This document shows positions 40,253 to 64,000 of a DNA stretch of 64,000 nucleotides, piece after piece. Each line of letters opens with the position of its first letter. Within the stretch, counting starts at the first letter, position 1. The position numbers and the translations under genes were made by a program. The stretch comes from Corynebacterium sanguinis (GTDB lineage: Bacteria > Actinomycetota > Actinomycetes > Mycobacteriales > Mycobacteriaceae). Under the pieces are notes generated by a model. It saw nothing but the letters and a program-made list of their open reading frames with translations, searched no databases and was not told the DNA's origin. The stretch covers positions 744,001 to 808,000 of the forward strand of contig NZ_CP038157.1 in assembly GCF_007641235.1 (NCBI RefSeq), read 5' to 3'.

Positions 40253-40525
40253 ATGCCCAAGGCGAAAATTACCAAGGACAACCTCCCGGTACAGTCCGCG
40301 TCGACCGCTACCTCCCGCACGCCTGTCAAGATCAACACGGGCGGCACGCCCATGTGGTATAAGGTGATCATGTTTGGCCTGCTCATCCTGGGCCTTGCTT
40401 GGCTTATCGCCTTCTATGTCGCGGGTGATCAAGTCCCGTTCCTCGCTCAGCTCGGCCCGTGGAACTACCTGATCGGATTCTCCGCCATCATCGCCGGGCT
40501 CCTGATGACCATGGGATGGCGCTAA
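40253..40525 (+). CDS. crgA: cell-division protein CrgA
   Basis: A 90-residue protein with a basic N-terminal tail and two membrane segments (VIMFGLLILGLAWLIAFYVA and NYLIGFSAIIAGLLMTMGW), the CrgA layout. In actinobacteria CrgA bridges FtsZ, FtsQ, FtsI and CwsA at the septum. It follows pknB by 56 bases and is closed by a hairpin at 40555-40596. Confidence 0.93.
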   Translation: MPKAKITKDNLPVQSASTATSRTPVKINTGGTPMWYKVIMFGLLILGLAWLIAFYVAGDQVPFLAQLGPWNYLIGFSAIIAGLLMTMGWR

Positions 40526-40596: not shown

Positions 40597-40735
40597 GCGC
40601 ATTTCCAGCAACCTGGGAAAAAGATGAACGACGGGTGTACCCTTTCGTTCCCCCCTCGCTCAACGCGGCGCTGCCGGCGTATTTCTACCTGACGAAATCA
40701 CTGCTCCGCCCCGCTTGAGAAAGGCCCCGAAGACC

Positions 40736-42094
40736 ATGAAGTTCACACGCGTTTCGCGCTCTGTGGCAGCGCTGTCTGCTGTTGCCACGCTGACCGTCGG
40801 CGCTGCCCCGGCTTTCGCGCAAACCCTGGAAGAATCCGCGCCGGAGACCCCCGCCACCAACGACGCCCTGCCGATCGTTCACACCTACCGTGGCTCCGAC
40901 CACATCAAGGCGAACATCCTCAACCCGCGCCCGGTGTGCAACTCCACCGAGGACTACCGCACCATCGTGTACAAGGTCACCGACAACTTCCTGCCGGTGG
41001 GCACCATCTCCACGACAAACCTGTCGAACAATACCGTGCCGCTGACCCAGGACCTGTCGCGCACCCAGTCGATCACCGCGTCCGTCAATGGCTCCAAGAC
41101 TGAAACGCTCAACCTCGGCGGCCAGGCGTCGCGCGAGGGCCTGCAGGGCACCATCGGCTACGCGATGGCCAAGACCCTCGGCTTCTCCGTCTCCGGCACC
41201 CTGTCCTGGAACGTCGGCCAGAAGATCGGCCCCTACGAGGTTCCCGCCGGCCACACCGGCGAGGCTACCTACGGCTTCCGCACCGTGACCATGACCGGCA
41301 CCCAGCAGCGCTGCCGCCCCAACGGCACCTGGGCAACCCCGACCGCCTGGATCGCCAACATGCCGGTGAAGAACGAGGTGCGCGTGAGGAACTACGCCAC
41401 CCCGGCCGACTCCTGGGCGCCGAACAAGGGCGCACAGATCACCGAGACCAAGGACAATCCGAACCCGGCCTACGCGAGCGACCTGGAGAAGGTTACCGAG
41501 GGCGAGCCGCTTAACGACGTCGCCCCCGTCGCCGACGACGTCAAGGCAGACATCACCGACGGTGCCGCAGCCACAAACTTCGACGCCGTTTCCGACGAGA
41601 CCGTCAAGGTCATCGCCCCCGAGTACGATTTGCAGCCGTACTTCACCACCTCGAACCTTAAGGCCCCCGGCTTCGTCGGCTCCGTGGCCCTGCGCGTGAA
41701 GAACGTCGGCACCAAGCGTTACTGGGCTGAGTTCCCGGTGGTCACCTTCCGCGTTGAGGTCAAGCGCGAGGTTGGTCCGGAGGGCGTCGATAGGCTGATG
41801 ACCTCCTTCGGTGCCAACGGCTCCCACGTCCGCGACCTGGGTTACAACTTCGACACCAACGCCCGCGTCTTCGAGGTGACCCTGTCCAACCCGGTCAACG
41901 TCGGCGACGACATGCTGCTCGTCGCCTTCAGCTTCGGCGACGGCAAGACCCGCGAGGGCCGCTTGATCAACTACATGACCGTCACCCAGACCGGACGTAT
42001 CTCCGGTGACTCGTCTACCGGAAACGACCAGAACGTCGACTCCCGCCAGGTGACCCGGAGCGACGGCGGCCGCAAGAACCCGGGTCTCTTCTAA
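40736..42094 (+). CDS. secreted protein of unknown function with a beta-pore-forming-like middle
   Basis: A 452-residue exported protein. The signal peptide ends in AAPAFA, with cleavage before Q. Residues about 75-190 show long stretches alternating Ser/Thr with hydrophobic residues (SRTQSITASVNGSKTETL; GFSVSGTLSWNVGQ), then YEVPAGHTGEATYGF and TVTMTGTQQRC. This resembles the amphipathic strands and conserved loop of aerolysin/ETX-MTX2-type pore-forming proteins. Two cysteines (near residues 69 and 192) may pair. The C-terminal third has beta-rich segments ending in a basic tail. No enzyme motif is seen. It is strongly codon-optimised, alone between crgA and a convergent rhomboid gene. Confidence 0.75.
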   Translation: MKFTRVSRSVAALSAVATLTVGAAPAFAQTLEESAPETPATNDALPIVHTYRGSDHIKANILNPRPVCNSTEDYRTIVYKVTDNFLPVGTISTTNLSNNTVPLTQDLSRTQSITASVNGSKTETLNLGGQASREGLQGTIGYAMAKTLGFSVSGTLSWNVGQKIGPYEVPAGHTGEATYGFRTVTMTGTQQRCRPNGTWATPTAWIANMPVKNEVRVRNYATPADSWAPNKGAQITETKDNPNPAYASDLEKVTEGEPLNDVAPVADDVKADITDGAAATNFDAVSDETVKVIAPEYDLQPYFTTSNLKAPGFVGSVALRVKNVGTKRYWAEFPVVTFRVEVKREVGPEGVDRLMTSFGANGSHVRDLGYNFDTNARVFEVTLSNPVNVGDDMLLVAFSFGDGKTREGRLINYMTVTQTGRISGDSSTGNDQNVDSRQVTRSDGGRKNPGLF

Positions 42095-42144
42095 GACTCC
42101 CTCCATCTAGCCCCATCCGGTTCTCCACCGGGGTGGGGTTAGTT

Positions 42145-42339
42145 TTATCCACAGGCTGTGCATAGCTGTGTGGATTATCCGCTTGTCCACACTTGTGGAT
42201 AACTCTGTGCACTATTTCCACACTCGATTTTGTGCCTACTGCAGGTGCGTTGAACTGGTCCTTAGAGTTTTTCTTCGGCGCGGCGTTCTAGAAATTACAT
42301 CTCTGTAGTTATCTACAGTGTGCACAACTCTGGGGATAA
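42145..42339. promoter_or_regulatory. cluster of six DnaA boxes in a convergent intergenic gap
   Basis: Two perfect TTATCCACA boxes (42145-42153 plus; 42194-42202 minus) and four with one mismatch: TAATCCACA (42169-42177 minus), TTGTCCACA (42183-42191 plus), TTATCTACA (42309-42317 plus), TTATCCCCA (42331-42339 minus). They lie between the ends of two converging genes, where no promoter is expected. The whole 245-base gap holds no other feature except a weak GC hairpin after the secreted-protein gene. Confidence 0.75.
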
Positions 42340-42933
42340 CTAGTGCCTGGGGATAGGCGGTGAAAAGGTCAGTGGCCACGCCAACAGGACACCCGCCGCA
42401 AGGCCACCCAAGTGCCCCCACACGCTCACACCGGGCGCGATAAAGGTGAACGCGACGTTGAGCACCAGTAAGGCGATGGGGGCGCGCAGGTCGGAGGAGC
42501 GTCGATAAGCAATGGCGACCAGTACCGCAAGCAGGGCGAACAGGGCGCCCGAGGCCCCGGCCGTGGGCGTGCCAAAAGCCATCGCGAGCACCGCCGCCGA
42601 CGACGCGAGCGTGCCGACGACCCAAGCAACAACGAAGCGGGCGGTGCCAATAGAGCGCTCGATCTCGCCACCGATCAGCACCAGCATCAGCATGTTAACG
42701 AACAGGTGCGACAGGTCGAGGTGCAGAAAGCCAGCGGTGAGCAGGCGCAGCCAGCCGAGCGGGCCCTCGGCGACGAAGGGACCGTAGAGCACCATGCGGA
42801 TGCCCAGCGGTGAGCCCCAGACCGTGTTGCTCAGGGAGGAGGACTGCGCCGCGGCGATGGCGAAGACGGCGATGCACAGCGCGGCAATGGCGGCGGTGGC
42901 GGGGGCGCGGTAAAAGATCGTGCGAAGGTTCAT
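42340..42933 (-). CDS. rhomboid-family intramembrane serine protease
   Basis: A 197-residue protein with six membrane segments. The catalytic serine is in GASGALFALLA (GxSG) and the catalytic histidine in VWGHLGGLAAG on the last segment; HLFVNMLML is the conserved HxxxN region. Rhomboids cleave membrane proteins within or near their helices; the substrate is unknown. The position next to ppiA is conserved in corynebacteria. Confidence 0.92.
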   Translation of the reverse strand: MNLRTIFYRAPATAAIAALCIAVFAIAAAQSSSLSNTVWGSPLGIRMVLYGPFVAEGPLGWLRLLTAGFLHLDLSHLFVNMLMLVLIGGEIERSIGTARFVVAWVVGTLASSAAVLAMAFGTPTAGASGALFALLAVLVAIAYRRSSDLRAPIALLVLNVAFTFIAPGVSVWGHLGGLAAGVLLAWPLTFSPPIPRH

Positions 42934-42986: not shown

Positions 42987-43511
42987 CTACTTCTGGATGT
43001 CGATGGACTCGATCACAACGTCCTCGACCGGGCGATCCATCCGGCCGGTGCGCACGTTGGAGATCTCGGTGACAACCTTCTGCGACGCCTCGTCCGTGAC
43101 CTCGCCGAAAATCGTGTGGCGATTGTTCAGGTGCGGCGTCTTGTCCACGGTGATGAAGAACTGCGAACCGTTGGTGCCCGGGCCGGCGTTCGCCATAGCC
43201 AGGAGGAACGGGCGATCGAACTGCAGCTCCGGGTGGAACTCGTCAGCGAACTGGTAGCCCGGGCCGCCGGTGCCGGTGCCGGTCGGGTCGCCGCCCTGGA
43301 TCATGAAGCCCGGGATGATGCGGTGGAAGATCGCACCGTTGTAGAACGGGCCCTCGTTGCTACCCGACGCGTTCTGCGCAGAGTAGTTCGCCTCACCAGT
43401 GGCCAGGCCGATGAAGTTCTCGACGGTCTGCGGGGCGTGGTTGCCAAACAGATCAATGACAATGTCGCCGTGGTTGGTGTGCAGAGTTGCTTTCGCAGTT
43501 GAATCAGTCAT
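42987..43511 (-). CDS. ppiA: cyclophilin-type peptidyl-prolyl cis-trans isomerase
   Basis: A 174-residue single-domain cyclophilin that speeds proline isomerisation. It has the active-site [14 protein letters not shown] (catalytic Arg), the NGSQFFI stretch and the HTIFGEV motif. There is no signal peptide, so it is cytoplasmic. ATG 43511 gives the usual short N-terminus; an ATG three codons upstream (43520) is possible. The adjacent 413 bases carry palindromic repeats. Confidence 0.95.
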
Positions 43512-43564
43512 GGTGACCATTGTAGATGCATCCGGGGGGTTGGTGCTTTTGCGGGTTGGGGGTT

Positions 43565-62935: not shown

Positions 62936-64000
62936 TGCTGGCCTCCAGTGTTGAGACCCCGTCATTCATGGTGACAAGGTAGCGGGCCGACACCGCGTCG
63001 GCGAGGTTGCCGGGCAAATCGTCACCCACCGCCGCAGTGATCAACACCTGCTCGGCGCTTTGCGCCACGGCGACGAGGCGCTGGCGGCGAAGCGCATCCA
63101 GCTCGGCGAACACGTCGTCGAGGATAAGCACGGGGTGCGAGCCCTCGGAGGCGAGCAGCGCGTACTCGGCCAGGTGCAGCGAAAGCGCGTAGGACCAGGT
63201 CTCGCCGTGGCTGGCGTAACCCTTGGCCGGGGTGTCCCCGAGCATGAGCACCATGTCGTCGCGGTGCGGGCCAACAAGCGTGGTGGCGCGCTCGATTTCC
63301 TCCCTGCGCCGCCGCGCGAGTTCGGTGAGCATCGCGGCCTCGATAACACCCGGCTCGCGGCTGGGCTCGCCGGAAAGAGCGCGCACCGCGTCGTCGACGG
63401 TAGAGGAATAGGACACGGATGCGGGGCGCGATTCGGGCGCGACCGCCGCGTAGGACTCGGCGATGTGCGGGGTGAGGACGTCGAGAAGCTCAAGCCTGCC
63501 CGCGGTGACTTCCGCGCCGAGCCGCGCGAGCTGGAGATCCCACACGTCCAGGGTGGCCAGGGCGCTCGCGCCGGTGTCGTCGCTGTAGCCGCGGCGCAGC
63601 TCGTGAGAGGAGCTGCGCAGCAAGGCGTTGCGCTGTCGCAGCACCTTGTCGTAATCTGCCTTCGCCCCGCCGAGGCGCGGGGCGCGCGATGCCGCGAGCT
63701 CGTCGAGGAACCGGCGCCGCTCCGCAGGCTCGCCCGCTACCAGCTTGAGGTCTTCGGGCGAAAACATCACGGTGCGCAACACACCGAGCACCTCTCGCGC
63801 CGATTTCAGCCTGGTGCGGTTGATTTGGGCCTGGTTGGCTCCGTTGACCTTGATCAACAGATGGGTTGTCAGCTCCCGGTCGTCGTTGACGGTGGTGACG
63901 GACACGCGGGCATCCCCGCACCCGGAGCGGATTAGCGGGGCGTCCGTTGACACCCGATGGCTGCCGAGCGTGCTGGTGTAGTGCAGCGCCTCGACGATAT
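62928..64000 (-). CDS. recF: recombination protein RecF (5' end outside window)
   Basis: SMC-like ATPase of gap repair. The visible 356 residues start at [17 protein letters not shown], just after the Walker A region, and include [32 protein letters not shown], the ABC-type signature region [14 protein letters not shown], and Walker B ([13 protein letters not shown]) with QVLITAA. The N-terminal 30-40 residues lie beyond position 64000. dnaN should follow upstream. Confidence 0.95.

What the first reader, a model, noticed from the sequence alone, without database searches (positions are those of the whole stretch)
42145..42339. DnaA-box cluster in a convergent gap about 22 kb from the recF end of the window
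Two perfect and four one-mismatch DnaA boxes lie within 195 bases, in both orientations, between the 3' ends of two genes. Promoter regulation by DnaA is therefore unlikely. The true oriC is expected beyond position 64000. This could be a DnaA-titration site (as datA in E. coli), a DnaA-reactivating site or a secondary origin. The distribution of boxes is seen directly; the role is inference.
Basis: partly seen in the sequence, partly recalled or inferred. Interest (0 to 1): 0.72.

Follow-up and report, generated by a model that had tools for sequence, protein, structure and literature searches.

The report
Ancient DnaA control site near oriC
The cluster looks like a real docking site for DnaA, the protein that starts DNA copying, and a similar small element sits beside the gene crgA in most sampled families of the same bacterial class; it probably helps control when chromosomes are copied, and its tuberculosis counterpart is known to bind DnaA.

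Summary
In detail: six DnaA boxes (two exact) lie in 42145-42339, in a convergent gap 23 kb from the dnaA-dnaN region. Genome-wide, TTNTCCACA forms only four clusters (three or more within 400 bp): this gap, dnaA-dnaN, rpmH-dnaA and upstream of dnaB. The gap cluster is conserved: 42 of 55 Corynebacterium genomes with the rhomboid carry it. Outside the genus, 67 of 92 loci 3' of crgA have the palindrome AATNACA-N4-TGTNATT with a DnaA box nearby (33 of 43 families; shuffles 1 of 1840); 38 of 92 have the full grammar palindrome, box(+), box(-), box(-), mostly 1 and 4 or 2 and 3 bp apart (shuffles 0 of 920). Its mycobacterial counterpart is the Rv0010c-Rv0011c site, shown in print to bind DnaA, under convergent clinical mutation, of unknown function and with 'no obvious correspondence' elsewhere (PMC7738170). 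The core topology (two boxes in tandem, one opposed) is that of E. coli DARS, with other spacing. I read it as a trans-acting site that tunes DnaA, most likely DARS-like, with an unknown palindrome-binding partner. GC skew does not cleanly exclude an origin role. DnaA binding was not tested here.

The parts
42293..42310 (.). 18-bp palindrome AATTACA-TCTC-TGTAGTT (class consensus AATNACANNNNTGTNATT); putative site of an unknown partner protein
   Evidence: sequence; 11 of 14 scored positions in this genome; aligned across the genus and 62 loci of 31 other families
42309..42317 (+). DnaA box TTATCTACA (one mismatch), first of the head-to-head pair
   Evidence: register
42319..42327 (-). degenerate DnaA box TTGTGCACA, second of the head-to-head pair, 1 bp from the first; TTATCCACA in many corynebacterial relatives
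   Evidence: sequence; relatives
42331..42339 (-). DnaA box TTATCCCCA (one mismatch), tandem to the previous, 3 bp away; abuts the rhomboid stop codon
42203..42292 (.). spacer between the two modules; in relatives the next box(+) lies 126-150 bp from the pair in 45 of 46 named loci
42145..42153 (+). exact DnaA box TTATCCACA (second module)
42169..42177 (-). DnaA box TAATCCACA (one mismatch)
42183..42191 (+). DnaA box TTGTCCACA (one mismatch to TTATCCACA)
42194..42202 (-). exact DnaA box TTATCCACA, 2 bp from the previous, head-to-head
42107..42143 (.). G+C-rich hairpin after the left gene, terminator-like; not part of the conserved element
   Evidence: fold; role is inference
42340..42933 (-). 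rhomboid-family gene (PF01694), convergent neighbour and synteny anchor
42987..43520 (-). ppiA-like peptidyl-prolyl isomerase gene (PF00160), second anchor
40253..40522 (+). crgA (PF06781), the anchor of the element in the other families; here separated from it by one inserted gene
   Evidence: G000:C1:784253-784522

Best explanation
The gap is a non-coding, oriC-proximal DnaA control site that acts on the DnaA pool in trans and not on its neighbouring genes. DnaA binds a head-to-head pair of boxes plus a third box in tandem; a second, still unknown protein probably binds the adjoining palindrome and helps build the complex. In Corynebacterium a second box module about 125 bp away adds to it. 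The mechanism I think most likely is DARS-like: opposed DnaA molecules on the core lose ADP and leave as apo-DnaA that reloads ATP. I put that sub-mechanism at about 0.35; the reverse, datA-like ATP hydrolysis, at 0.2. The confidence below is for the broader claim, a trans-acting DnaA control site. Shown here: boxes, grammar, synteny, conservation, rarity of such clusters. Shown by others for the mycobacterial counterpart: DnaA binding in vitro and in vivo, and a cell-length phenotype of site variants. Inferred: DnaA binding in corynebacteria, the partner protein, the effect on nucleotide state.
For: Only four dense clusters in the genome; four of the five high-affinity DnaA sites reported for M. 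tuberculosis (oriC, Rv0010c-Rv0011c, upstream of dnaB, Rv3843c-RVnc0040, rpmH-dnaA; PMC7738170, section read) have a counterpart among them. 42 of 55 rhomboid-bearing Corynebacterium genomes have four or more boxes beside the rhomboid gene, one of them displaced to 1.2 kb; 35 of 55 match the composite at 26 or more of 34 positions, one mononucleotide shuffle of each reaches 21 at most. A strict pattern scanned in the collection of 84,980 species genomes gives 46 stretches with one match each, 45 titled Corynebacterium and one a Mycobacteriaceae MAG; the rhomboid lies beside it in 43 of 46, and in the other 3 the match is within 240 bp of the stretch's edge. The cassette is inverted relative to the rhomboid in 5 of those 43. 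In other families palindrome plus box lies 3' of crgA in 67 of 92 loci (shuffles 1 of 1840; upstream windows 0 of 58), the full three-box grammar in 38 of 92 (shuffles 0 of 920). The topology equals the DARS1 and DARS2 cores (PMC5742627 passages). Neighbours vary while the element stays: in 12 of 52 loci the rhomboid match ends within about 500 bp (convergent), in 11 of 52 a codirectional PH-like gene was detected. In print, neither Rv0010c nor Rv0011c expression changes in dnaA mutants, while site variants lengthen cells (PMC7738170 passages).
Against: Box spacing differs from DARS (mostly 1 and 4 or 2 and 3 bp here, 5 and 3 bp there). DARS activity, DnaA nucleotide state and binding in corynebacteria were not testable. 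13 of 55 Corynebacterium genomes lack the cluster, 20 of 55 score under 26 of 34 for the composite, and 25 of 92 other loci lack palindrome plus box, 54 of 92 the full grammar, so it is dispensable, replaceable or variable. The early-replicating position is closer to datA than to DARS2 in E. coli (recalled). Five of 13 strict palindrome-plus-box matches in the class sample sit in nrdR and nrdJ promoters, a transcriptional setting. The window's own copy scores 28 of 34, in the lower third of the 35.
Confidence: 0.58

Rival explanations
1. Plain titration reservoir: the boxes only soak up free DnaA right after the site is duplicated, early in the round, and so delay re-initiation.
For: Dense exact boxes, 23 kb from the dnaA region; many boxes in some corynebacteria, up to 14. 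Titration by clusters outside oriC is an established idea (recalled: B. subtilis DnaA-box clusters, Streptomyces clusters).
Against: 74 of 92 non-Corynebacterium loci have one to four boxes with up to one mismatch, 9 have none and 9 have five to eight, few for a sink beside oriC; a register shared across families and a non-box palindrome are not needed for a sink.
Confidence: 0.2
2. DnaA with a partner regulates transcription: of crgA, of the downstream PH-like or rhomboid gene, or of an unannotated RNA; or the inverted boxes serve as terminators.
For: In 11 of 52 loci a PH-like gene follows codirectionally; 5 of 13 strict palindrome-plus-box matches lie in nrdR or nrdJ promoters.
Against: In the window and in 12 of 52 other loci the gap is convergent with a rhomboid; the cassette can be inverted (5 of 43); no Rfam match in the gap; published expression of Rv0010c and Rv0011c is unchanged in dnaA mutants (PMC7738170 passage). 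A terminator would not need DnaA consensus letters in one register.
Confidence: 0.12
3. Secondary or true replication origin.
For: Cumulative GC skew over 84 kb has its minimum at 786,129, on the gap; the minimum is at or within about 600 bp of the gap in 4 of 9 genomes (G000, G041, G043, G028).
Against: In 4 of 9 the minimum is 3.6-5.2 kb into the numbering that starts at dnaA and in 1 it is 6.9 kb before dnaA. In the genome with the strongest skew, G042, the dnaA-to-gap stretch has the sign of the far side (intergenic -0.117, +0.111, +0.076). Pooled intergenic skew is -0.029, +0.017, +0.041, bootstrap 0.79 in favour of an origin at dnaA, so weak. Runs of four or more DnaA-trios occur in dnaA-dnaN of 3 of 9 and in the gap of 0 of 9. 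Genes converge on the gap.
Confidence: 0.05
4. Chromosome organisation or segregation site that merely uses DnaA as an architectural protein.
For: It lies in the ori domain; one palindrome copy lies between xerD-like and parA-like genes in G014 (names recalled from sequence).
Against: In 8 of 8 other genomes the parS-like sites (up to 2 mismatches) lie on the other side of dnaA; the only exception is one 2-mismatch site in G016, about 6.5 kb beyond the gap; none was found in the 84 kb of the window's own genome.
Confidence: 0.05

Closest known systems
M. tuberculosis / M. smegmatis Rv0010c-Rv0011c DnaA-binding site (Hicks et al. 2020, PMC7738170)
   Same: Same place, 3' of crgA (that Rv0011c is crgA is recalled); palindrome then boxes. 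In a mycobacteria-like locus (L188) the palindrome ends 66 bp before the start of the PH-like gene (counted by hand); the paper puts its palindrome 65 bp upstream of the Rv0010c start. That the two are the same palindrome is my inference; the paper describes its palindrome as two sequences resembling DnaA boxes.
   Different: In the window the gap is convergent, one gene separates it from crgA, there is a second module, and two boxes are exact. The paper reports no obvious correspondence of the site in other bacterial species and no mechanism.
DARS1 and DARS2 of E. coli
   Same: Core of three boxes, one opposed head-to-head to two in tandem: + n5 - n3 - in L106 and L107, + n1/2 - n3/4 - here; intergenic; DARS2 needs partner proteins (PMC5742627 passages).
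   Different: Spacing; IHF or Fis sites were not looked for; position near oriC; ADP release untested.
datA of E. coli
   Same: Box cluster in an intergenic region, described as near oriC, with a partner protein, IHF (PMC10380432 passage).
   Different: Other box order, tRNA context absent; ATP hydrolysis untested.
B. subtilis DnaA-box clusters and Streptomyces clusters outside oriC
   Same: oriC-proximal clusters proposed to titrate DnaA (recalled; the Streptomyces paper is not held).
   Different: No shared synteny or palindrome known to me. Eight of 8 genomes of a Streptomyces-like family (f27; label from size and G+C) have two or more boxes in the crgA-rhomboid gap, 4 of 8 the palindrome at 10 or more of 14; whether this is one of the published clusters I could not check.

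Membership tests
Counterpart of the mycobacterial Rv0010c-Rv0011c DnaA site | Lies 3' of crgA near dnaA | tested here: met
   67 of 92 other-family loci with palindrome plus box within 350 bp of the crgA stop; in the window crgA is 1.6 kb away with one gene between
Counterpart of the mycobacterial Rv0010c-Rv0011c DnaA site | Palindrome plus DnaA boxes in one register | tested here: met
   full grammar 38 of 92 other loci, 26 of 55 Corynebacterium loci at up to 2 mismatches per box and 37 of 55 at up to 3
Counterpart of the mycobacterial Rv0010c-Rv0011c DnaA site | Bound by DnaA | not testable with these tools
   shown in print for mycobacteria only
DARS | Three-box core, box I opposed to boxes II and III | tested here: met
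DARS | Core spacing shared by DARS1 and DARS2 (5 and 3 bp) | tested here: not met
DARS | Stimulates ADP release from DnaA | not testable with these tools
   biochemistry
datA | Stimulates ATP hydrolysis by DnaA with IHF | not testable with these tools
   biochemistry; IHF site not searched for
oriC | Skew inflection at the site | tested here: inconclusive
   4 of 9 genomes at or beside the gap, 4 of 9 within 3.6-5.2 kb after the dnaA start, 1 before it
oriC | DnaA-trio or unwinding element | tested here: inconclusive
   runs of four or more trios: dnaA-dnaN 3 of 9, gap 0 of 9
MtrA binding site | (A/G)TAACAAT direct repeat with 3-bp linker (PMC3353115 passage) | tested here: not met
   the palindrome is an inverted TNACA-N4-TGTNA, compared by eye
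FtsR binding site | 25-bp motif AACCCTAAAGTAAAGGTTGAGGGTA (PMC6683498 passage) | tested here: not met
   compared by eye

The most novel reading that the evidence does not exclude
This is a founding element of replication control in Actinomycetes: a DnaA-reactivating or inactivating locus held beside crgA since the ancestor of the class, working with a dedicated palindrome-binding protein. The same palindrome sits next to DnaA boxes in corynebacterial oriC and in some nrdR and nrdJ promoters, so that protein would couple initiation to nucleotide supply. It would be the missing counterpart of DARS/datA in a phylum where none is described to my knowledge, and would give a reason for the clinical selection on the mycobacterial site.
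Probability: 0.25. Interest if true: 0.93.

Novelty: new variant of a known kind. Interest (0 to 1): 0.8.

Why it matters
How actinobacteria time replication is poorly known. A site found beside the same gene in 33 of 43 sampled families, with a recurring grammar, gives a concrete and testable handle in harmless hosts, and gives an evolutionary frame for a mycobacterial DnaA site that matters in tuberculosis and that its discoverers could not connect to other bacteria.

Tried and rejected
Gap as primary oriC: suggested by the skew minimum, not borne out across genomes. MtrA and FtsR as palindrome binders: published motifs do not fit. NrdR as binder: a lead only; strict matches lie in nrdR and nrdJ promoters, but the palindrome's centre is shorter than that of the NrdR box as I recall it. 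Other strict palindromes lie near fbiA-, whiB2- and parA-like genes (names recalled from sequence), which points to no single regulon. Sharing of the palindrome with oriC: 11 to 13 of 14 positions in 9 of 9 corynebacterial dnaA-dnaN regions; as a control, the best score in the rest of each 84-100 kb is 11 or 12, and in 8 of 9 that best place lies 73-603 bp before dnaA, so the score alone is not exceptional; in 6 other-family dnaA-dnaN regions only one reaches 11 and the others 8 or 9, so the sharing is not class-wide. The pattern TCCACA-N(0-30)-TGTAAYT has a match at oriC or where oriC is expected in 16 of 16 genomes (position checked against dnaA in 9) and at the gap in 8 of 16, but its total (43) is not far above the reversed control (32); only the places are informative. 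Opposed box pairs sought in 26 further genomes: 7 of 26 have a match. Rfam: nothing. Phylum search: crgA in 47 of 100 genomes; of those outside the class only 3 loci were read, each with a palindrome-like stretch and box-like 9-mers. No paper found that describes the element outside mycobacteria, in the listings; the library lacks most subscription papers. The 6 genus genomes without a rhomboid match were not examined for the cluster, apart from the pair search.

Full report
Observation. The six boxes are exactly as listed. The gap lies at 786.1-786.3 kb of a one-contig 2.36-Mb genome of which the window is 744,001-808,000. dnaN and dnaA are at 808.1-811.5 kb, with box clusters on both sides of dnaA. 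Genome-wide the gap is one of only four clusters of three or more TTNTCCACA within 400 bp, and the densest; the others are dnaA-dnaN, rpmH-dnaA and the region before dnaB. Ten places hold two or more exact boxes within 300 bp; among those ten, only these four have five or more boxes with up to one mismatch.

Conservation in the genus. The rhomboid next to the gap was found in 55 of 61 genomes. With loci of all 55, 41 have four or more boxes from 100 bp before to 700 bp after the rhomboid stop, one more has five boxes 1.2 kb away, and 13 have none or one. A ppiA match stays beside the rhomboid in 52 of 55. The composite TTATCCACA-N-TGTGGATAACTACATT-N-TTGTAATTT scores 26 or more of 34 in 35 of 55; one mononucleotide shuffle of each reaches at most 21. 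A scan of the collection of 84,980 species genomes with a strict pattern gave 46 stretches, one match each, 45 titled Corynebacterium and one a Mycobacteriaceae MAG. In 43 of 46 the rhomboid is beside it; in the other 3 the match is within 240 bp of the stretch's edge. Counted from the pair (1+, 11-), a box(+) at 126-150 is present in 45 of 46 and a box(-) at 186-230 in 46 of 46; 5 of the 43 cassettes are inverted relative to the rhomboid. This set overlaps with the genomes.

Conservation in the class. crgA was found in 81 of 81 genomes of the order sample and 117 of 118 of the class sample. Of about 186 such genomes outside Corynebacterium I read 92 (loci). Within 350 bp after crgA, 83 of 92 have a box with up to one mismatch (shuffles 8.4%, upstream windows 2 of 58), and 67 of 92 have the palindrome at 10 or more of 14 with a box nearby (shuffles 1 of 1840, upstream windows 0 of 58). 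Per family 33 of 43 have at least one; f8, f9, f10, f12, f15, f16, f19, f25, f32 and f37 have none by this count. Nine of those ten were sampled once, f25 three times; f9, f10, f19 and f25 do have two or more boxes, and f16 is probably a miscount. The full grammar (palindrome, box(+), 0-3 bp, box(-), 2-6 bp, box(-), each box within 2 mismatches) is present in 38 of 92 loci of 16 families, shuffles 0 of 920; the commonest spacing is 1 and 4 bp (21), then 2 and 3 bp (10). In Corynebacterium it is 26 of 55, or 37 of 55 with 3 mismatches. Some other families (for instance L223, L233) show, by eye, box(+) n4 box(+) n1 box(-), which again is two in tandem and one opposed. Sixty-two loci of 31 families could be aligned on the palindrome; 54 have the palindrome on the crgA side and the boxes beyond it, the orientation also seen in the window. 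The palindrome score and the grammar were designed after I had looked at these loci, so they are not blind tests; the shuffles and upstream windows are the controls.

Link to published work. PMC7738170 (outline, passages and section 9 read) maps DnaA in M. tuberculosis by IDAP-seq and in M. smegmatis by ChIP-seq. [quoted passage not shown] Rv0011c is crgA (recalled). Site variants lengthen cells and affect isoniazid survival; expression of the two flanking genes is unchanged in dnaA mutants; the authors mention titration or nucleotide exchange as possibilities and see no obvious correspondence in other bacterial species. The four clusters of the window's genome are counterparts of four of the five. 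The exact boxes and the dnaB cluster were in hand before I met that paper, the count of four clusters was made after it. This makes DnaA binding in the window likely, without showing it.

Mechanism. The core is two boxes in tandem and one opposed, 3' ends facing. E. coli DARS1 and DARS2 cores have the same topology, read here from K-12: + n5 - n3 -, and a review names the head-to-head contact as the prominent feature (PMC5742627 passages). Spacing differs, so it is not filed as a DARS. I rank a DARS-like effect first because of topology, because few boxes per site (one to four in 74 of 92 loci) argue against a sink, and because the published site variants lengthen cells as the dnaA variants do. 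A datA-like effect is next, given the early-replicating position.

Origin question. Skew minima fall at or within about 600 bp of the gap in 4 of 9 genomes, 3.6-5.2 kb into the dnaA-based numbering in 4 and 6.9 kb before dnaA in 1. Coding-corrected and intergenic skew are weak and lean towards dnaA; the strongest genome, G042, is clear for dnaA. I hold an origin role at 0.05.

The partner. The palindrome also scores 11 or more of 14 in dnaA-dnaN of all 9 corynebacterial genomes compared, but comparable scores occur elsewhere in the same regions, in 8 of 9 just before dnaA. Strict palindrome-plus-box matches in the class sample are 13 in 13 of 118 genomes: 8 beside crgA and 5 in nrdR (3) or nrdJ (2) promoters. 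In a strict palindrome search of nine genomes there were 14 places in 7 genomes: 4 in dnaA-dnaN, 1 before dnaA, 3 at the crgA or gap site and 6 elsewhere. The binder is unknown.

Noticed in passing
G000:C1:902365-902712 (L035, L276): DnaA-box cluster of six boxes with up to one mismatch (four TTNTCCACA) upstream of dnaB, counterpart of the published mycobacterial site upstream of dnaB.
   Followed up: partly
L271, L272, L273, L274, L275: Palindrome plus DnaA box (strict match) upstream of nrdR (3) or class II ribonucleotide reductase nrdJ (2), next to what looks by eye like another inverted repeat; possible joint DnaA control of nucleotide supply.
   Followed up: partly
L032:1400-1830 and eight other dnaA-dnaN regions: Corynebacterial oriC carries one or two copies of a similar palindrome close behind DnaA boxes just after dnaA.
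   Followed up: partly
window 40715-42094: Secreted-protein-like gene of 459 aa without a Pfam match, inserted between crgA and the DnaA site; a relative of it was found at this place in 7 of 55 loci.
   Followed up: no
G000:C1:1297059-1297084: Two exact, opposed DnaA boxes 8 bp apart upstream of a gene for a single-strand-binding-family protein (PF00436).
   Followed up: no
L287, L288: Palindrome copies near fbiA- and whiB2-like genes in two mycobacteria-like genomes (gene names recalled from sequence).
   Followed up: no
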